Of a DNA stretch of 11,209 nt, positions 2,441 to 11,209 are shown in pieces. The notes under the pieces are model-generated. The model saw only the letters and a list, made by a program, of their open reading frames with translations, did no database searches and was not told where the DNA came from. The stretch covers positions 1-11,209 of the forward strand of contig NZ_JAKKIE010000084.1 in assembly GCF_021742065.1 (NCBI RefSeq). Direction: 5' to 3'. A program made the position numbers and the translations under genes. Origin of the DNA: Rhizorhapis sp. SPR117 (GTDB lineage: Bacteria; Pseudomonadota; Alphaproteobacteria; Sphingomonadales; Sphingomonadaceae). Position 1 is the stretch's first letter. Each line of letters opens with the position of its first letter.

Positions 2441-4459
2441 TCAGGCGGCGTCGGCGATCGGCGCGTCGTCCTGCGGTTCGGCCTCGCAAACCGTCACGTC
2501 GGCCAGGCCGTCGTCCGAAGGCTCGGCCTCGTTGGCCGCCTGGGGTGCGATCGTCTCGAAGCGCATCGCCTCGGGTACCCAAGCCAAAGCGCGGGCCTTG
2601 TCGTCCGCACCGATGTGCATGTCCCCGGCGAAGAGCCTTTCGGCGGAGGCGGCCAGATCGTGCTTCTTGGAGGCACCATAACGCTGCCGGAGTTCGGCGC
2701 CGCCGACATCCTCGAACTGCGCGAGGATCGACGCCTTGCTGATGCGGTCGAAATAGTTCTTCGCCGTCGGCCGCCACCAGCTCGCCACGTCGATCTCCAG
2801 CTTCTGACCGAGATGGTCGATGAACGCGCTGCCCGTCTTGCCGGCGGGAACGGCATGGATGGTTCGCGCGATCGCCCAACCGAGCCAGGCGGCACGCGCC
2901 TCCTCGGGCAGGGCGCAGAAGGCGTCGTAGCGATCGCGGACATCGACATGGTCGGTCCAGCTGCGATCGAGGGCGGCATCGAGCTTGGCCCATTCCTCGG
3001 CCGCCTGCGTGTCGCTCTGGAAGCCGATGACGCGCGAGGGAGCCTCGTCCGAGCGGAGCTCGGTCGCGAGATCCCCGCCGCCATAGCGCTGGCGCGCCTT
3101 GTCGGCCATGTAGAAGGTGCCGAGATCGAGAGCGAACCGGGGATCGCTGGCGACATGGAGGCGCAACAGTTCCGCCTTCATGGTCGCGAGCTCGTCGGCC
3201 AGCCGCTGGCTGATGACGGGCTTGCCCGACGCCTGATCCTCGACCGTCTCGTCCTCGCCGTCCACCTCGGACGGCTCGCTTTCCTCGTCGTCCACGGCTG
3301 CCGGCGCGACATAGAGCTGCTCGTGGATCCGCGGCTGGCCGTCCCTGCCGATGACGACATAGGCGAGTGCGGTCGCTTTCTGCTCGTCGGTCAGGACCGG
3401 GGTCCGCTCCACGATGGCCTGATATTCGGCTTCGAGCTCGCGGGTTCGGGCCTCGTCGTCCTCGGTATAGCCCTCGCCATCCTCGTCCGATGCCCGCTCC
3501 TCGATCGTTTCGAGCTCGGCCTGGATTTCCTCGCAGCGTGCCTCCTGCTCCGGTGCGAGCGGCGGCAGTTCGGCGCGGACCGGCCGAAGATCATAGGTCT
3601 CCTGATAGGTGACATGGGTGGTCGGCAGAACGCGGATCTCGGCGAAACCTTCGCGCTCGCGAATGGCTTCGGCAGCCTCGGCGAGCTTCTCGTTGGCAAG
3701 CCGATCGACGAGGTCGCCATCGATCCAGCGTTCCGTCGCCTCGTTGGAAAAGAGGTCGGGATCGATCCGGCCTCCGGCCGCGACATAGGCCTCGCGACCG
3801 ACGAGCAGGGCCTTGGGATCGCCGCCCAGATAGGTGCCCTGGGCGAGCCGGCGCCTGATCTCGCTCGCATTTGTGCTGTAATAGCCTTGGCTCATCTCCT
3901 CGAAGACGGCGGCCTGCCGGGTGACGTCGGGATTGCTGCCATAGGCCATGGCGATCTCGAGCGTGATCTCGCCCTTGCGGAGCGCCTCGAAGACGACCTC
4001 GGCAAGGTCGGCGAGCCGCACGCGACCGAGGACGAAACGCTCCGACTTGTGGAATCGAGCGGCGACCTGTGCCGGCGTCTTGCCCTCCTTCTCGATCATG
4101 TTCTTGTACGCCATGCACTCGTCGGCGGGACTGGTGGGCAGCTTCTGGTTTTCCGCCAGGCTGAGCGTGATCGCATCCTTGGTGTTGGGCAACACCATGA
4201 CAGGAACCTCGAAGTCCTCGTGGAGCTTGCCCTTCTCGATGAGGCTGAGGACGCGGGTGAGACGCCGGCCGCCGCCGAAGATGCTGTAGCTGTCCTTTTT
4301 ACGCTTCACGGCCACGCCGATGAGGTTCTGGATGACGTAGCCGGTCTCGCCGATGAGCGCCTCCAGCTCGGCATCGGCTTCGGGATCGCTCTGGGTTCGC
4401 ACGTTGAGCGGGGAGACGACGCAGTTTCGCGCCGGTACGTAGACGATCGGATAATTCAT
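2441..4459 (-). CDS. Large ParB/RepB-type nuclease-fold DNA-binding protein
   Basis: This is a plasmid-type ParB-like protein of 672 residues, about twice the size of a partition ParB. The N-terminal ParB/Srx domain (about 1-110) contains GGGRR (62-66) and SLAENQ (100-105), which match the GERR and ENxxR boxes of ParB. A helix-turn-helix-like segment follows (about 129-150, AQVAARFHKSERFVLGRVRL), then a long region rich in Asp and Glu (about 340-450). The C-terminal half is unassigned. The start is chosen for MNYPIVYVPA, with AGGAG 7 bases upstream; a 40-codon upstream extension has no such support. No ParA lies beside it, so a role in partition is not shown. Large ParB-like proteins of this kind often accompany strawberry-notch genes on sphingomonad and rhizobial plasmids. 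The local gene order therefore suggests an element-maintenance or DNA-handling role (inference). Confidence 0.85.
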   Translation of the reverse strand: MNYPIVYVPARNCVVSPLNVRTQSDPEADAELEALIGETGYVIQNLIGVAVKRKKDSYSIFGGGRRLTRVLSLIEKGKLHEDFEVPVMVLPNTKDAITLSLAENQKLPTSPADECMAYKNMIEKEGKTPAQVAARFHKSERFVLGRVRLADLAEVVFEALRKGEITLEIAMAYGSNPDVTRQAAVFEEMSQGYYSTNASEIRRRLAQGTYLGGDPKALLVGREAYVAAGGRIDPDLFSNEATERWIDGDLVDRLANEKLAEAAEAIREREGFAEIRVLPTTHVTYQETYDLRPVRAELPPLAPEQEARCEEIQAELETIEERASDEDGEGYTEDDEARTRELEAEYQAIVERTPVLTDEQKATALAYVVIGRDGQPRIHEQLYVAPAAVDDEESEPSEVDGEDETVEDQASGKPVISQRLADELATMKAELLRLHVASDPRFALDLGTFYMADKARQRYGGGDLATELRSDEAPSRVIGFQSDTQAAEEWAKLDAALDRSWTDHVDVRDRYDAFCALPEEARAAWLGWAIARTIHAVPAGKTGSAFIDHLGQKLEIDVASWWRPTAKNYFDRISKASILAQFEDVGGAELRQRYGASKKHDLAASAERLFAGDMHIGADDKARALAWVPEAMRFETIAPQAANEAEPSDDGLADVTVCEAEPQDDAPIADAA

Positions 4460-4469
4460 GGTGTTACTC

Positions 4470-4513
4470 CTGGCGGCGGAGGCCGGACCATTCAGGCCAC
4501 CTGGCGCCGCCAG
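4470..4513 (-). promoter_or_regulatory. Stem-loop overlapping the ParB-like gene's ribosome binding site
   Basis: In the minus-strand transcript CTGGCGGCG (4505-4513) pairs perfectly with CGCCGCCAG (4470-4478) around a 26-base loop. The 3' arm ends in AG, the first two bases of the AGGAG ribosome binding site. Folding would therefore restrict initiation at the start codon at 4459. This is seen by eye and the free energy was not calculated. Confidence 0.45.
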
Positions 4514-4870
4514 TTCCCCACCCTCTTTCCTTCCTTTCGCAGTGCATCGGTCCGGTGCTTGACGCACGCGCGTGGCCAACGAGTTGCCGAGCGTCGGTGG
4601 GAATGGAGCCGAAGCTCAGCCAGCGGCCAAAGAGAGAGAGAAGACCGAATACACTGGCCACGGTCCGGCTGATCAAGGGTTGGCCGCACATGCTCCCATT
4701 CTGGCAACGATTTCCGAAGGAAACGGCGGAACTTGCTGGCTTGTCATGCTATTGTCACGCTCGGATCGGGCGGTCTTGCTGCAACACGATCGTGCCGGCG
4801 CATCGCCGAGCGGGCGCAAGGTCTCGTTCGCTGGCCCTGTCGGGCGAGCCTTCGGACTGAGGAGGAGGAG
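4514..4870. other. Intergenic region without a recognisable gene
   Basis: This stretch divides the minus-strand ParB/helicase genes from the plus-strand genes to the right, so it should hold the divergent promoters. I see no reliable -35/-10 pair. TTGTCA occurs twice on the plus strand (4741-4746 and 4752-4757), 11 bases apart, which could be two same-face protein-binding half-sites. The short frames here have no family resemblance. Confidence 0.4.
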
Positions 4871-5612: not shown

Positions 5613-5858
5613 ATGGCGCTCTATGTGAAGGATGCCGAGGTCGCGCGCATGGCAGAACGGCTGGCGATGCTACGGCGGATCAGCAAGAAGGAAGCGGTTC
5701 GCAGCGCGCTTCAGCATGAGCTGGAGCGTGAAGAGGCGGTCCCGTCCCTTGTGGAGCGGGGCCTCGAATTTGCCCGTGCCCTTCGCGCGCGCGGGAATCC
5801 GCGGAAAACGATCAAGAGCGACAAGGCCTTCATCGACAGCCTCTACGGGGAGAGCTGA
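5613..5858 (+). CDS. vapB: VapB-family antitoxin
   Basis: This 81-residue antitoxin belongs to the Rv0623-like/PSK transcription-factor group. The N-terminal part (MALYVKDAEVARMAERLAML) is the short strand plus helix used for dimerisation and DNA binding, with the RRISKKEAVRSAL helix following. The C-terminal tail (about 45-81) is the toxin-binding part and ends in the typical DKAFIDSLYGE. AAGGAGG lies 7 bases before the ATG. The stop overlaps the vapC start by one base (TGATG), so the two are co-translated. It should neutralise VapC and repress its own operon. The length is normal and nothing looks broken. Confidence 0.88.
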   Translation: MALYVKDAEVARMAERLAMLRRISKKEAVRSALQHELEREEAVPSLVERGLEFARALRARGNPRKTIKSDKAFIDSLYGES

Positions 5859-6253
5859 TGTTCGTCGATGCCTCTGCGCTCACCGCGATCCTGTGCGACG
5901 AAAATGACGGCCATGAGCTCCTGGCGAGGCTGCAGAAGGCCCAGGAGCGCCTCACCTCTCCGCTTGCGATCTGGGAGTCCGTGATCGCGGTCGCCCGCAA
6001 TCTCGGACTCGAGGTGCGCGACGCGCATGATGCGGTCGAACAGTTCTTGCGCCTAGCCGACATCGTGGTCGTGGCGGTCTCGCCGGAGGCGCGCGCGATC
6101 GCGATCGAGGCCTACGACCGGTTCGGGAAATCGCGCCATCCCGCCAATCTGAACTTCGGCGATTGCTTTGCCTATGCCTGTGCAAGACAGGCCCGCGTCG
6201 CGCTGCTCTACAAGGGCGATGACTTCCCCCATACGGACATCGAGACGGCATGA
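5858..6253 (+). CDS. vapC: VapC-family PIN-domain toxin ribonuclease
   Basis: This 131-residue PIN-domain endoribonuclease is the toxin of the vapBC pair. VapC enzymes cut tRNA or rRNA using Mg2+ held by acidic residues. Those residues are present here: D4 (MFVDASAL), E40 (SPLAIWESV), D102 (NFGDCFAYA) and D121/D122 (KGDDFPHTDI). The order and spacing are those of an active VapC, and the length is normal. There is no ribosome binding site of its own because it starts inside the vapB stop. It probably stabilises the plasmid or island by post-segregational killing. The RNA target cannot be read from the sequence. Confidence 0.9.
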   Translation: MFVDASALTAILCDENDGHELLARLQKAQERLTSPLAIWESVIAVARNLGLEVRDAHDAVEQFLRLADIVVVAVSPEARAIAIEAYDRFGKSRHPANLNFGDCFAYACARQARVALLYKGDDFPHTDIETA

Positions 6254-6321: not shown

Positions 6322-6338
6322 CTATGTGTGAGGCAATC

Positions 6339-6593
6339 ATGAGTCGGTTGACCATCGACATTACAGATCGGCAGCATCAGACCCTGAAGGCTTTGGCCGC
6401 CCTCCACGGCAAGACGATCAGGCAATATGCGATCGAGCGGCTGTTTCCGGCCGGTGCGGGGGAAGATCAGCCATGGCAGGAGCTGAAAACCCTGTTGGGC
6501 CGGCGGATCGCGGAGGGCTTGGCGGGCGACGTATCGCCCCGGAGCATTGGTGCAATCGTTGAGGAAGAGTTGGACGAGGACAGCCGCGCTTGA
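6339..6593 (+). CDS. ParD-like ribbon-helix-helix antitoxin, toxin partner broken
   Basis: This 84-residue antitoxin has an N-terminal ribbon-helix-helix (MSRLTIDITDRQHQTLKALA, then GKTIRQYAIERLF) for DNA binding and dimerisation, and an acidic C-terminal tail (SIGAIVEEELDED) that would wrap the toxin. The ATG at 6339 is preferred over the one at 6324 because GAGG lies 5 bases upstream and the ribbon starts there. The stop overlaps a TTG start of a ParE-like frame (TTGA at 6590). That frame is interrupted after 25 codons, so this antitoxin is now an orphan. It may persist as a repressor at the palindrome 6286-6321 or act on ParE toxins elsewhere. Confidence 0.8.
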   Translation: MSRLTIDITDRQHQTLKALAALHGKTIRQYAIERLFPAGAGEDQPWQELKTLLGRRIAEGLAGDVSPRSIGAIVEEELDEDSRA

Positions 6594-6721
6594 CCGCCAG
6601 CCACATCCTGACAAGGGCGGCGGAAGCGGATTTGCGGGACATCATTCGCTACACGCGCAAGCAATGAGGTAGTGCGCAGGTTCGGAGCTACATCGTCAGG
6701 CTGGAAATTGCGAACGCTTGA
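6590..6721 (+). pseudogene. ParE-like toxin remnant with in-frame stop
   Basis: From the TTG at 6590 the frame reads LTASHILTRAAEADLRDII then RYTRKQ, the opening of a ParE/RelE-type toxin (first strand and helix). A TGA at 6665-6667 stands where members of the family usually have Trp (RKQW.G..Q). Reading through it, the same frame continues GSAQVRSYIVRLEIANA, the second helix of ParE, to a stop at 6719-6721. The remaining half of the toxin, with its C-terminal strands, is not found downstream. One point mutation plus loss of the 3' end is the simplest explanation. A sequencing error would explain the stop but not the missing half. Confidence 0.7.
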
Positions 6722-7264: not shown

Positions 7265-7912
7265 ATGTCCTCCGATCCGGTAACGACCACGCGTATCTAT
7301 GAGCAATTGAAGGCGGACATCATCGGGGGCCGCTTTCCTCCACGCACTCGGCTCGTAGAACGCGCTCTCGCCGTAGAATATGGTGTGAGCATCAGCCCTG
7401 TTCGCAGTGCAGCGTACTGCCTTGTCGGCGAGAAGCTGCTGAAGCTTCATCCGGGAGGCGGCTTTGATGTCCCCGACATCACGGAAGACGGCCTTCGCGA
7501 TCTCTACTTTTGGCATGGCCAGCTTCTCCGCAATGCTCTCCATGTCGGGAAACGCGCCGCACCAGAACGACCCCGCGAAGAGTTCGAAAGCCTGACCAAC
7601 CTGATCGCAGCAGCGGCTATCGCGGCCGCTGCGGCGAACCTCTTCTCGCATATTGCGGGTCATTCACCAAACGCACAACATCGCAGTGCAATCCTTGCCG
7701 CTGGTGAGCGCCTTCATGTGGTGAGACTCAGAGAGCCTTTAGTACTCGGCGGCGTGGCCGATGAGCTCGGGGCGGTCCAAGCCTTGACCGTGACCGGTAG
7801 AACCTCGGACCTGATGACAGCCATATGGGCCTACCACAGGCGCCGCCTCCGTCGCGTAACAGACCTGGTCGCCGCGGTCGGCGGCACGGTTCACGGCGGC
7901 CGATCCGACTGA
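7265..7912 (+). CDS. GntR/FadR-family transcriptional regulator
   Basis: This 215-residue regulator carries an N-terminal GntR winged helix at about 8-70: IYEQLKADIIGGRFPPRTRL, then LAVEYGVSISPVR as the helix-turn-helix, and a Gly-rich wing (HPGGGFDVPDIT). The rest is helical and resembles the FadR-type ligand domain, but the usual metal-binding Asp/His set is not clear and an Ala-rich run (115-124) is odd. The family normally has about 220-240 residues. The start at 7265 is chosen because the winged helix begins there; the frame is open for 80 codons upstream without homology. Its position 166 bases before the lasso precursor, on the same strand, suggests it controls the cluster (inference). 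It could also regulate an unrelated gene. Confidence 0.75.
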   Translation: MSSDPVTTTRIYEQLKADIIGGRFPPRTRLVERALAVEYGVSISPVRSAAYCLVGEKLLKLHPGGGFDVPDITEDGLRDLYFWHGQLLRNALHVGKRAAPERPREEFESLTNLIAAAAIAAAAANLFSHIAGHSPNAQHRSAILAAGERLHVVRLREPLVLGGVADELGAVQALTVTGRTSDLMTAIWAYHRRRLRRVTDLVAAVGGTVHGGRSD

Positions 7913-7989
7913 ATTCGTGCCAGAAACGACACATTCGACCGGTTTACTATCACCGCCCGCCATGACTGCGTCACAACTCGTGTCGTCAA

Positions 7990-8002
7990 TGATAGCTTAT
8001 CA
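7990..8002. promoter_or_regulatory. Candidate operator upstream of the lasso precursor
   Basis: TGATA-GCT-TATCA is a short perfect inverted repeat (5+3+5) in the only gap between the regulator gene and the lasso precursor. It is the best small palindrome I see there and is a possible GntR-type site. It is short enough to occur by chance, and no clear -35/-10 pair accompanies it. Confidence 0.25.
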
Positions 8003-8078
8003 GATCGGTGATCAACCTCCGCGCGGATAGGATCTGGCGTGCTGCACACCGCAGTACCCAATGCGAATGGAGGACACC

Positions 8079-8216
8079 ATGAGCCGCGAGAATGAACTGG
8101 ACGACGACCTCATCGATCTCGGTGCTGTCACCGAGGAAACCAAGGGACTACAATCGATGGGCCAACCGGATGAACTGACTGGTCTGGCCTTCGGTCCCGG
8201 CCTCGATCCGGAATGA
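8079..8216 (+). CDS. Lasso peptide precursor (astexin-like)
   Basis: This 45-residue precursor has a predicted leader (1-22) ending LIDLGAVTEETK, which closely follows the astexin-type leader end LIVLGKASAETR. The Thr at position -2, required for maturation of most lasso peptides, is T21. The core (23-45) starts with Gly. Its ring segment is GLQSMGQPD, and Asp9 would close the macrolactam with the Gly1 amine, as in astexin-1 (ring GLSQGVEPD). The 14-residue tail reads ELTGLAFGPGLDPE. L14 and F16 of the core are the bulkiest candidates for steric plugs. The core is acidic, with no Cys, Lys or Arg. GGAGG lies 5 bases before the ATG. The gene is followed directly by the B and C maturation genes, which strongly supports the assignment. 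Confidence 0.9.
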   Translation: MSRENELDDDLIDLGAVTEETKGLQSMGQPDELTGLAFGPGLDPE

Positions 8217-8222
8217 TCGCCT

Positions 8223-8246
8223 CGGGCGCGCGCTTGCGCGCGCCCG
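8223..8246 (+). promoter_or_regulatory. Strong GC hairpin between lasso genes A and B
   Basis: CGGGCGCGCG (8223-8232) and CGCGCGCCCG (8237-8246) form a perfect 10-bp stem closed by a CTTG tetraloop, 6 bases after the precursor stop. Only two T residues follow, so it is a weak terminator at best. It would more likely attenuate or protect the 3' end of the precursor mRNA, giving more precursor than enzyme. Stem-loops at this junction occur in other proteobacterial lasso operons. Confidence 0.7.
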
Positions 8247-8263
8247 TTCGTGATAGGCGCAAT

Positions 8264-8917
8264 ATGGCCATTCACCCTCAGATATATTTCACGCGGACGG
8301 GCGGCCGAACAATTCTCCTCGACGTGGCGGGCAATCGATATTTTTCACTGCCACATACCGCTGAGCAGGCGTTCTCTCGTCTATGCGAAGAAGGTTTCCT
8401 GAGTCCGGTCGACGAGGCTGCCCTCCGGTCGCTCTCTCGTCTTGGCATTGATTTGCACTCTCCACGCTCCACGCTTTGCCAGCCCAGCCCGCAGCCAGCT
8501 CGAACGACACTTGGTGAAGCAGCCCAATTAAGACCAAGCGGGCTCTCAATTGCTGTTGCATTGGTGCTGCAATTGGCAGCACGTATAGCATTGAAGCAAT
8601 TCGGCATCAGGGCAGTCCCCTTAACCCTGCGTTGGGTAAGACGTGATGAAGCATACCTGTCGAATGACGGGGCTCGAACCGCGCTCCTAATAGCGGCACA
8701 CCGAAAGGCAGCCCTATTCGCCGGACGACATGACCGCTGCGTGGAAAAGTCCCTTGCGGCTGCGTGGCATCTTGGAATTGCCCGTATCAGATGCACTGTC
8801 GTCGTGGGCGTGCGCTCCACGCCGTTTCTAGCCCATTGCTGGCTCCAACGCGACCACTGCGTCCTGAACGACGAACTTGACAAGGTAACAACCTTCACAC
8901 CAATCCTGGGCGTATAG
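8264..8917 (+). CDS. Lasso peptide maturation protease B (RRE fused to transglutaminase-like peptidase)
   Basis: This protein removes the leader peptide and hands the core to the cyclase. At 217 residues it is a fused B1-B2 protein, the usual proteobacterial form. Residues about 3-75 are the PqqD-like leader-recognition domain (YFTRTGGRTILLDVAGNRYF, then a helical part). Residues about 100-217 are the transglutaminase-fold Cys protease with C159 (GRHDRCVEKSLA), H191 (FLAHCWLQ) and D203 (VLNDELDK), a complete triad. The ATG at 8264 fits family starts. An in-frame ATG at 8213 overlaps the precursor stop (ATGA) and would add 17 basic residues encoded by the hairpin, so coupling from there cannot be excluded. 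The stop lies 4 bases before the C gene, so B and C form one unit. Confidence 0.9.
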   Translation: MAIHPQIYFTRTGGRTILLDVAGNRYFSLPHTAEQAFSRLCEEGFLSPVDEAALRSLSRLGIDLHSPRSTLCQPSPQPARTTLGEAAQLRPSGLSIAVALVLQLAARIALKQFGIRAVPLTLRWVRRDEAYLSNDGARTALLIAAHRKAALFAGRHDRCVEKSLAAAWHLGIARIRCTVVVGVRSTPFLAHCWLQRDHCVLNDELDKVTTFTPILGV

Positions 8918-8921
8918 CGTC

Positions 8922-10670
8922 GTGAGCCGCTTCATCTGCCGAGTAGCAATTGACAATAATGAGCCAAGACAACATTCTGCGCTACCATTCCAAAGTGCGG
9001 GCCTGAAACTTGCGTTCGCTTTCAAACAAGCTACATTGTATTGTAATGATATCCCGAAGTCCCAGCATTCTGTCGACGGCGACATTTACACAATAGGTTT
9101 GAGCTTCTCGCCGTCCGGCGATCAGCGTTCAGTTAGCGAAATTCGTAAGTGTGACAAGCATGCGGAAATTCTTCGTGAACGCTGGGGTTCATTTGTTTCA
9201 ATCAAAAGACATGTAGACGGTAGGGTTAGCGTCGTCCGCGACCCGTCCGGTCTCCAGCCTTGCTACTTCATGGAGGCGGACGGAGCGTTTGTCTTCTCGT
9301 CAGACGTAGACCTGTTGGTCAAGGGAGGGTTCCTGACACCAGCCATCGACTGGGCAGTCCTCGGAGAAACGCTTCTGTTCCCGGGAAACTTTCATGCCGC
9401 GACTGCCTTGCGCGGGGTTACAGAGTTATTGCCTGGGGAGCAGGCAACCATCACACGGAACGGAATAAGCATCGGTACGGTCTGGTCTCCTTGGGACATC
9501 GTGGTCGACGTTAAGATGACCTATGAGGATGCCACACGCGAATTAAGAGGTGCTCTGGAGACGGTTCACAGAGGCCTGTCCTCTGTGTCAAAACAATCTC
9601 TTGTAACAGTATCTGGGGGCCTGGATTCATCCATCATCGCTGCACTTACTTCTCGAGATTGCACAAAGACAACACTTGTGACATTCTACACCGATGATCC
9701 GTATGGGGACGAACGGCGTTACGCCCAAGGGCTCGCCGAGCATTTAAAATGTGAGTTGCTTGTACTTCCCTACGTCGCACCAGAGTTGGAAACGTGCTTG
9801 ACGATGCGCGCATTCCTGCCTCGGCCTACAAATCGAGGCCTAGCGATGGGAGTAGATTCGACGCTACGGAAACTGGCGTGCAAAGAAGAGTCATGCATGA
9901 TCTTTAACGGCTACGGTGGCGACAACGTATTTTGCTCTTTACGGTCAGCCCGCCCCCTTTCTGATGCGATACTCCATGGGCGCAGCTTGAAATTGGCGGG
10001 GCGTGTATCTCGTTCCCTCGCCAATTTGACAGGTGCATCATACTCACAGATTTGGAGCGCGGCGCTAAGGGGGGTTGCACGAGCTTTATCGGGCTCGACC
10101 GGCTATCGGTGGCCACGCAATAGCAGCATGCTCGGCGCGACTTTGCGGGAGATCGAGCGGCCCGCGATTCTACATCCCTGGCTGATGCGAGCCGAGGCGA
10201 CCATGCCCGGTAAGGCTGCCCACGTCGCATCGCTTGTCGTCGCGCATAATCATCTTGAACGCTTCGCCCAAGCAGACAACGTAACGAGCGTATCGCCACT
10301 TCTGACTTCGCCCATCGTAGAGCGAGCAATATCTGTTCCGACATGGATGTGGTTCGAGAATGACCTTGACAGATTCATCGCGCGCAAAGCCTGTTCCGAC
10401 CTCCTCCCTGCCAGCTTGGTATCTCGCACGACAAAGGGAACACCAGTAGCTTTGCATAGTCGCTTCTTTGAAGCGCATAGGAAAAGCCTCGGTGACTATC
10501 TCGCCAATGGATTGCTCGCTGACCGGAACCTACTCGACCGCGATGCCGTTGCTCGGTGCTGCAAAAGCGAGGGGCCGTCTAGGGGCTTGGACTTTCTGCG
10601 AATCTTGGAACTGGTTGACGTTGAGAGTTGGTGCCGTTTCTGGACGGAACAAGGCCTGCTGCTTCATTAG
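8922..10670 (+). CDS. Lasso cyclase C (asparagine synthetase B-like)
   Basis: This ATP-dependent macrolactam synthetase should adenylate the Asp9 side chain of the core and join it to the Gly1 amine. Its 582 residues match the family. The N-terminal glutaminase-like domain (about 1-190) lacks Cys2 (it starts MSRF), as expected because lasso cyclases use no glutamine. The synthetase domain has the ATP pyrophosphatase motif SGGLDSS (231-237) and NGYGGDNVF (329-337), which matches the second AsnB motif. The start is GTG, 4 bases after the B stop, with no other good start nearby. Its base composition is visibly richer in A and T than the ParB/helicase genes, with many rare-looking codons for a GC-rich host. 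This points to horizontal origin. The 3' end is overlapped on the other strand by the isopeptidase remnant's run-on frame. Confidence 0.92.
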   Translation: MSRFICRVAIDNNEPRQHSALPFQSAGLKLAFAFKQATLYCNDIPKSQHSVDGDIYTIGLSFSPSGDQRSVSEIRKCDKHAEILRERWGSFVSIKRHVDGRVSVVRDPSGLQPCYFMEADGAFVFSSDVDLLVKGGFLTPAIDWAVLGETLLFPGNFHAATALRGVTELLPGEQATITRNGISIGTVWSPWDIVVDVKMTYEDATRELRGALETVHRGLSSVSKQSLVTVSGGLDSSIIAALTSRDCTKTTLVTFYTDDPYGDERRYAQGLAEHLKCELLVLPYVAPELETCLTMRAFLPRPTNRGLAMGVDSTLRKLACKEESCMIFNGYGGDNVFCSLRSARPLSDAILHGRSLKLAGRVSRSLANLTGASYSQIWSAALRGVARALSGSTGYRWPRNSSMLGATLREIERPAILHPWLMRAEATMPGKAAHVASLVVAHNHLERFAQADNVTSVSPLLTSPIVERAISVPTWMWFENDLDRFIARKACSDLLPASLVSRTTKGTPVALHSRFFEAHRKSLGDYLANGLLADRNLLDRDAVARCCKSEGPSRGLDFLRILELVDVESWCRFWTEQGLLLH

Positions 10671-11136
10671 TTCCAATCTTAAGCGATGTCGACGCTTCCT
10701 GTAATGACCGCCAAGATCCGATGTCCGTTATCATTGAGGCTGGTCCTGATGATTTGTCGAGCATCCAGAAATTGAACCACGCTATGCTTCGATCATAGGC
10801 AGCCAACCGGTGCGCAGGCTGCCAGAAAATATGATACTCGTCGGGAAATACGTAGAGAGCGACGGGCTTACCGTTAGCACGCAATGCCTGTTCGCTTTCC
10901 AGAGCGTACAAGTATTCGCGATCAGATGTCTGAATCAGGAGGGGCGATCTTATTCGATGCGCATTTGCCGCGAGGGAATATTCTTTTGTACGCTCCACGT
11001 TTCCGTAATCGAACCCTGGATAGCCCATCGCTAGCGCCGATTTCGTAAGCAGCGGACCCAGCATCGCTCGAAGGGACACAGGGTCATCACAACAGGAGGA
11101 AATTGCGGCGGCCGCGAAGATCGGCGAATGAACTAG
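10579..11136 (-). pseudogene. Lasso isopeptidase remnant (S9 prolyl-oligopeptidase C-terminal part)
   Basis: The frame encodes the last part of a prolyl-oligopeptidase-fold hydrolase of the lasso isopeptidase (AtxE-like) group, which opens the macrolactam of the cognate peptide. It reads HSPIFAAAAISSCCDDP from 11130, then the catalytic Asp region LLIQTSDREY (Asp codon 10921-10923). The catalytic His region follows as FPDEYHIFWQPAHR (His codon 10831-10833), and then the terminal helix IAWFNFWML and SWRSLQEA. Upstream, stops at 11137-11139 and 11167-11169 close the frame. The GxSxG nucleophile region is not readable in any minus frame before the window edge. Beyond SLK (10678) the frame runs on about 32 residues antisense to the cyclase gene, so the native stop seems lost too. 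Alone, this fragment cannot be catalytic. Confidence 0.75.
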
Positions 11137-11209
11137 TCACCCGGAACTGTAATCCACCTCATTGATTCACGCCTCTTTGAGGAGATGAACAATGCTAGGT
11201 CGGCAGGCA

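What the first reader, a model, noticed from the sequence alone, without database searches (positions are those of the whole stretch)
8079..10670. Complete lasso peptide cluster with a core I do not recognise
The sequence shows a 45-residue precursor, a B protein with leader-binding and Cys-protease domains and an intact triad, and a cyclase with the ATP motif. From known astexin processing, cleavage after T21-K22 gives a 23-residue core. Its ring is GLQSMGQPD (Gly1-Asp9) and its tail is ELTGLAFGPGLDPE. My hand-calculated monoisotopic mass of the cyclised form is about 2310.1 Da, and the uncyclised peptide is 18.0 Da heavier. The ring follows astexin-1, but the Gly/Pro-rich acidic tail differs from those I know.
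Basis: partly seen in the sequence, partly recalled or inferred. Interest (0 to 1): 0.85.

Follow-up and report, generated by a model that had tools for sequence, protein, structure and literature searches.

The report
Lasso peptide cluster, isopeptidase gene broken
This stretch of DNA from a sphingomonad-like bacterium encodes an ordinary member of a known family of knotted (lasso) peptides with a new core sequence, next to a partner gene for a ring-opening enzyme that a jumping element appears to have interrupted.

Summary
A 45-aa lasso precursor (8079-8216), a fused leader-binding/Cys-protease B protein (8264-8917) and an ATP-motif cyclase C (8922-10670) are present and open. The core GLQSMGQPDELTGLAFGPGLDPE and mass (2310.084; 2+ 1156.049) check out. 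The precursor passes the curated Pfam 'Subterisin' and NCBIfam 'benenodin' cut-offs. The layout GntR-A-B-C, then a convergent Atxe2-type isopeptidase E, is that of published isopeptidase-containing clusters. The kind is known; the exact core was not found elsewhere in my searches, the nearest being a metagenomic precursor that differs at 3 of 23 core positions.

Two corrections. (1) The tail is not odd: 23 of 27 relatives' cores end G[LIM]xx[DE], as GLDPE does. (2) 'Complete' holds for A, B and C only. E is here a C-terminal fragment without its catalytic serine, cut at a CTAG site (11133) where an IS630-like end begins. The window stops 73 bases later, so receptor and regulator genes are unseen.

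Beyond the finding: a stable stem-loop follows 26 of 28 precursors examined, and the core is more conserved (87%) than its cyclase (50%) in the nearest relative, unlike 42 other cluster pairs of similar cyclase distance.

The parts
7265..7912 (+). GntR-type regulator, usual neighbour upstream of the precursor in this clade
   Evidence: PF00392 54.8 bits; 54% identity over 206 aa to the GntR directly upstream of a lasso precursor on a Sphingopyxis sp. DBS4 plasmid, L059
8079..8216 (+). Precursor A, 45 aa: leader MSRENELDDDLIDLGAVTEETK, core GLQSMGQPDELTGLAFGPGLDPE
   Evidence: PF24178 44 bits, NF033522 37 bits; position as in relatives
8145..8213 (+). Predicted 23-residue core; isopeptide Gly1-Asp9 inferred
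   Evidence: Thr at -2; Asp9 kept in P0002; mass
8223..8246 (+). Stem-loop in the A-B gap (10-bp stem, 4-base loop)
   Evidence: -28.4 kcal/mol, z -3.04; 26 of 28 precursors examined are followed by a stretch with z below -2
8264..8917 (+). B protein, 217 aa: leader-binding (RRE-like) domain plus Cys protease
   Evidence: NF033537, PF13471; C159/H191/D203; fold match to TbiB1
8922..10670 (+). C protein, 582 aa from GTG (start uncertain): ATP-dependent macrolactam synthetase
   Evidence: PF00733; SGGLDS invariant in 7 of 7
10579..11136 (-). 3' remnant of an Atxe2-type lasso isopeptidase (E), convergent with C; Glu and His at AtxE2 chain positions 610 and 638 kept, serine motif absent
   Evidence: NF033523 model 533-637 of 638, 139.7 bits (full-length cut-off 400); AtxE2 5txc E 1e-24; break point
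11133..11209 (+). Left end of an IS630-like element at a CTAG site; transposase start read at ATG 11192
   Evidence: First 21 bases identical to element ends in two S. meliloti regions, one annotated IS630; 82% over 76 bases to an element in G085 whose transposase frame also begins MLGRQA

Best explanation
An isopeptidase-clade (benenodin/astexin/subterisin type) lasso peptide locus of a sphingomonad. Shown: open A, B and C genes with family-typical motifs; E broken off at the window edge where an IS630-like end begins. Inferred from the family: B's N-terminal domain binds the leader, its Cys protease cuts after Thr21-Lys22, C activates Asp9 with ATP and joins it to the Gly1 amine around the threaded tail, giving a 23-residue lasso (2310.084 Da) or C-terminally trimmed forms. 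In intact clusters the peptide is thought to be taken up through the TonB receptor and opened by E; that last step is expected to be lost from this cluster. The A-B stem-loop most likely keeps precursor mRNA above that of B and C, by 3'-end protection or partial termination.
For: Curated hits above cut-off for A and B; B triad and C ATP motif conserved; RRE-like fold. Same gene order on plasmids: of 13 regions fetched (of 20 listed, 96 matching), 11 are annotated; in 11 of 11 A, B and C run one way (one A and one B found by tblastn) with a TonB receptor beyond, and in 10 of 11 E is annotated convergent with C. Review PMC9266682 (passages) calls this layout almost constant. Leader nearly the same as sphingocin's (PMC11006600, passages). 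E break and element end.
Against: No expression or product evidence. C is below the curated lasso-cyclase cut-offs. B's RRE domain is not found by sequence above threshold (15.5 bits against 70) and rests on a modest model. The 5' part of E could lie beyond the element. Only 77 bases of the element are seen.
Confidence: 0.9

Rival explanations
1. A decaying cluster: with E broken and perhaps the receptor operon lost, A-B-C is no longer expressed or selected.
For: E broken; the parE-like frame after parD carries an in-frame stop (read by eye), so the island holds another broken gene.
Against: A, B, C and GntR are open and keep their key residues; the core is very like P0002.
Confidence: 0.25
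2. The main mature peptide is shorter than 23 residues through C-terminal trimming, so the reader's exact mass would be missed.
For: Benenodin-1 is isolated with 5 tail residues missing (PMC13352647, legend passage).
Against: Nothing tested here; trimming depends on host peptidases.
Confidence: 0.4
3. It is an antimicrobial against near kin rather than a signal or carrier that is taken up.
For: Astexin-1 has narrow-spectrum activity (PMC9266682, passage).
Against: The same passage says the other known isopeptidase-clade peptides lack antimicrobial activity; no ABC transporter turned up among the 10 window ORFs scanned with Pfam.
Confidence: 0.1
4. The break in E is not fixed: other copies or cells keep E whole, or the right edge is an assembly fault.
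For: The B protein is listed on a contig of 11,209 bases, the window's own length, and the break lies 73 bases from its end; the precursor is also on a 4.25-Mb contig, whose E region I could not see.
Against: The junction has the CTAG site and terminal sequence of other copies of the element.
Confidence: 0.2

Closest known systems
P0002/P0004 metagenomic cluster (unnamed)
   Same: Precursor 82% identical, core 20 of 23; Asp9 and tail ELTGLAFG kept
   Different: Core positions 4, 5 and 18 differ; cyclase about 50% identical; pairing of P0002 with P0004 inferred from the same longest-contig length (142,067); state of E unknown
Sphingocin cluster, Sphingomonas BPH (PMC11006600, passages)
   Same: 45-aa precursor, leader ending DLGSVTEETK before Gly, A-B-C, adjacent isopeptidase and TonB receptor in the other direction
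   Different: Different core (GPGFINNDGVGGKLPFAGLSDD); isopeptidase reported present
Benenodin-1, A. benevestitus
   Same: Window precursor passes the NCBIfam benenodin cut-off; same clade layout per review PMC9266682
   Different: 8-residue ring there (passage), 9 predicted here
Astexins, A. excentricus
   Same: Isopeptidase clade; E remnant matches AtxE2; a hairpin was removed from the astexin-1 construct (PMC7549694, table row)
   Different: Different core sequences (recalled)
Sphingopyxis indica pMC4 precursor (L054)
   Same: Ring ends GQPD as here
   Different: Tail VQPGDRFILGGISADD; isopeptidase annotated at full length

Membership tests
Lasso peptide biosynthetic cluster | Precursor with Thr at -2, small residue at core 1, Asp/Glu at core 7-9 | tested here: met
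   T21-K22 before Gly23, Asp9
Lasso peptide biosynthetic cluster | B protein: leader-binding domain and Cys-His-Asp protease | tested here: met
   Protease; leader-binding domain by fold only, modest model
Lasso peptide biosynthetic cluster | C protein: asparagine-synthetase-like with ATP motif | tested here: met
   below curated lasso-cyclase cut-offs
Lasso peptide biosynthetic cluster | Threaded macrolactam product | not testable with these tools
   Needs MS and NMR
Isopeptidase-containing (benenodin/astexin) clade | Curated family score of precursor | tested here: met
   PF24178 44 over 27; NF033522 37 over 33
Isopeptidase-containing (benenodin/astexin) clade | GntR regulator before the precursor | tested here: met
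   7265-7912
Isopeptidase-containing (benenodin/astexin) clade | Whole Atxe2-type isopeptidase gene | tested here: not met
   Only the C-terminal part is in the window, cut where an IS630-like end begins; the remnant still shows clade origin
Isopeptidase-containing (benenodin/astexin) clade | TonB receptor and sigma/FecR pair beyond E | not testable with these tools
   Beyond the window end; no own genome held
IS630 family (IS870-like) | Terminal sequence, CTAG site, transposase | tested here: inconclusive
   Only the left end and 6 codons are in the window

The most novel reading that the evidence does not exclude
The peptide itself, not its machinery, is what selection holds still here: the core is 87% identical between two clusters whose cyclases have drifted to 50%, against 21-59% for the other 42 cluster pairs of similar cyclase distance. 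With E broken, this strain would be a natural producer that cannot open its own lasso, a supplier of a shared, receptor-defined signal or carrier, with the stem-loop after A as a clade-wide device for keeping precursor in excess.
Probability: 0.15. Interest if true: 0.55.

Novelty: new member of a known kind. Interest (0 to 1): 0.25.

Why it matters
It adds one core to a clade whose function is unsettled. A natural break of the isopeptidase beside open A-B-C genes would be a ready-made comparison for what ring opening is for. A core more conserved than its cyclase points to a conserved partner, perhaps the TonB receptor, that could be looked for.

Tried and rejected
Tail novelty: rejected after extracting 27 distinct cores from related loci. 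The extractor was given 27 places: 26 of the 32 B-protein hits (left out: L039, L040, L042, L045, which are the same places as L001, L003, L004, L005; L047; and L052, cut at its edge) plus L064. It demanded LG...T-x-[GASC] and D/E at core 7-9, so it cannot test those two features; it found none in L048, and the cores shared by L038/L002 and L043/L053 were counted once. Of the 4 cores outside G[LIM]xx[DE], three fit a laxer ending (26 of 27).

Locating the host: no own genome is held. Cyclase searches of 397 genomes (family sample, E up to 1e-85: 5 hits, 34-36% identity) and 396 genomes (order sample, partly the same, E up to 1e-95: 0 hits; at most 3 candidates per genome scored) gave no close relative. 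Genome contigs: 0 with the single cyclase; 36 loci with an alignment, of which 5 cover most of the cyclase at 31-38%. Viral contigs: nothing in three scans. Plasmids by protein with the precursor: 10 records, best matches 45-80%, none identical. The B search returned only the window's own protein and the precursor search had only 2 candidates; both say as much about the word filter as about rarity, since tblastn finds B relatives at 26-38%. PDB search with the core: two matches (nvWRAP-T, E 1e-4; Crov539, E 0.029), neither with a stretch passing on its own, taken as chance. Rfam: none at 7900-8500. The core's letters are in no main text of the paper library (supplements not searched).

Stem-loop control: 19 of 314 stretches after other stop-to-stop frames of 250 codons or more (mechanical, both strands, many not genes) fold at -22.9 kcal/mol or lower, against 26 of 28 after precursors. 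Both exceptions are the last precursor of a multi-precursor cluster (L056, L064). Not wholly new: a hairpin was removed from the astexin-1 construct (PMC7549694). A look for the founding astexin paper failed.

Element identity: the S. meliloti matches that led to it are weak by E-value (0.04-0.5), and in one of the two regions opened the only annotated transposase (IS5 family) lies outside the element. The G085 copy has its transposase frame in two pieces and the G180 copy showed no forward ORF of 150 aa.

Core-against-cyclase caveats: P0002 was found by its precursor, the other clusters by their cyclases; the 43 pairs share members and are not independent; L064 and the second L056 precursor were left out.

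Full report
What is there. The window reads, on the + strand, GntR (7265-7912), precursor A (8079-8216), B (8264-8917), C (8922-10670), then on the - strand a piece of a lasso isopeptidase (10579-11136), followed by 73 further bases to the window end. A passes Pfam Subterisin (44 bits, cut-off 27) and NCBIfam benenodin (37, cut-off 33); B passes NF033537 (66.5, cut-off 33); C matches Asn_synthase (86.3, cut-off 21) but not the curated lasso-cyclase cut-offs. B keeps Cys159, His191 and Asp203 in 6 of 6 aligned proteins. C keeps SGGLDS in 7 of 7. A model of B (pLDDT 73, 6 sequences) starts with three strands and two helices, and its best PDB match is TbiB1 with leader (probability 0.99, E 0.07); this is support, not proof.

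The core. Cleavage after Thr21-Lys22 fits the published sphingocin leader, which ends DLGSVTEETK before Gly (PMC11006600, passages), and a tblastn match of 80% over residues 5-24 to a Sphingopyxis precursor (L059). Pro8 rules out an 8-residue ring and Asp9 gives a 9-residue one; Glu10 is not excluded by any test but lies outside the 7-9 range given in that paper. Among 27 distinct cores from related loci, 22 have D/E at position 8, 5 only at 9, and 2 have Pro-Asp at 8-9, one of them also with GQPD. 23 of 27 end G[LIM]xx[DE], as this core does; their length (19-25), net charge (-5 to -1) and tail Gly+Pro fraction (0.06-0.38) include this core's 23, -4 and 0.36. The tail is therefore typical, if on the Gly/Pro-rich side. 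Phe16 is the only aromatic residue and a candidate steric lock; that is inference.

The setting. I fetched 13 of the 20 plasmid regions listed (96 records matched); 2 of the 13 (L055, L058) carry no annotation. In the other 11, A, B and C run in one direction and a TonB receptor lies beyond. E is annotated convergent with C in 10 (8 as Atxe2 family, 2 as prolyl oligopeptidase; in the eleventh, L057, tblastn finds it there). FecR and sigma follow in 10. GntR is directly upstream of A in 8 and on the far side in 3, one of which (L063) shows only 291 bases upstream of A. In L053 the precursor and in L062 the B gene are not annotated but are found by tblastn. Review PMC9266682 (passages) calls this layout almost constant. 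So the window is a standard cluster of this clade. The nearest DNA matches of the flank are Sphingobium, Novosphingobium, Tardibacter and Sphingomonas plasmids, the longer ones at 72-74%; the species is unknown.

The broken isopeptidase. The E piece covers model positions 533-637 of 638. In 19 of 19 relatives examined (of 28 tblastn hits), a GxSxG motif lies 7-8 residues before the point where the window's homology begins; none of the three frames of the window's last bases shows it. Against AtxE2 (5txc) the piece keeps Glu and His at chain positions 610 and 638 (counted), which I recall as triad members. At the break stands CTAGTCACCCGGAACTGTAAT, identical over 21 bases to element ends in two S. 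meliloti regions; in L065 an IS630 family transposase is annotated just inside and CTAG stands at both ends with inverted terminal sequence. In L066 the element's own transposase is not annotated. 76 bases match at 82-84% in 2 of 397 family genomes (3 places; a third genome has a short match), and in one, G085, the transposase frame begins MLGRQADAVVL, as the window's MLGRQA does, though that copy's frame is in two pieces. IS870 needs a CTAG target according to the title of a cited paper (reference list). The simplest reading is an insertion into E. Whether the 5' part of E lies beyond the element cannot be seen.

Stem-loop. Directly after A's stop is a 10-bp stem (-28.4 kcal/mol, z -3.04). 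The 50 bases after 26 of 28 precursors (the window's included) fold with z below -2, and 25 of 28 have an unbroken stem of 9 or more pairs; the two exceptions in z are the last precursors of multi-precursor clusters. The stems differ in sequence (by eye). There is no T run here, but some relatives have one (L050, L051), so partial termination is possible. No Rfam family matches. A hairpin was noted for the astexin-1 construct (PMC7549694, table row), and adding a strong ribosome site in the gap raised most yields 1.8- to 84.5-fold (PMC6092494, passage).

Core against cyclase. P0002, the only other precursor returned from 5.8 billion proteins at E up to 1 (2 candidates), shares 20 of 23 core residues. 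Its cyclase is taken to be P0004, the best cyclase hit after the window's own, because both list a longest contig of 142,067 bases; that pairing is inferred. Over 325 pairs of 26 clusters, 43 have cyclase identity of 40-60%; their core identities run 21-59% for 42 and 87% for this pair. The pairs are not independent, and P0002 was found through its precursor. Either selection holds the peptide or the A gene has been exchanged; DNA of that contig would tell.

Verdict. A real lasso cluster with a core not found elsewhere in these searches, of a well-described kind. Interest is modest; the interrupted isopeptidase and the conserved core are the parts worth following.

Noticed in passing
8223-8246 and the A-B gaps of related loci L001-L064: Stable stem-loop directly after 26 of 28 lasso precursors in this clade, sequence not conserved.
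   Followed up: partly
11133-11209: IS630-like left end at CTAG inside the isopeptidase gene.
   Followed up: partly
6324-6670: ParD antitoxin followed by a parE-like frame that carries an in-frame stop (read by eye).
   Followed up: no
5613-6253: VapB/VapC-like toxin-antitoxin pair, PSK_trans_fac and PIN domains, both open.
   Followed up: no
52-2385 and 2441-4579 (-): Plasmid or integrative-element genes: strawberry-notch-like NTPase and ParB-like protein. In Tardibacter pHSL4 the end of the matching NTPase gene is followed by three integrase/recombinase genes that separate it from a strawberry-notch C-terminal gene, so the left edge may be another element's insertion point.
   Followed up: partly
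P0002/P0004: Core 87% identical while cyclases are 50% identical, an outlier among 43 pairs of similar cyclase distance.
   Followed up: partly
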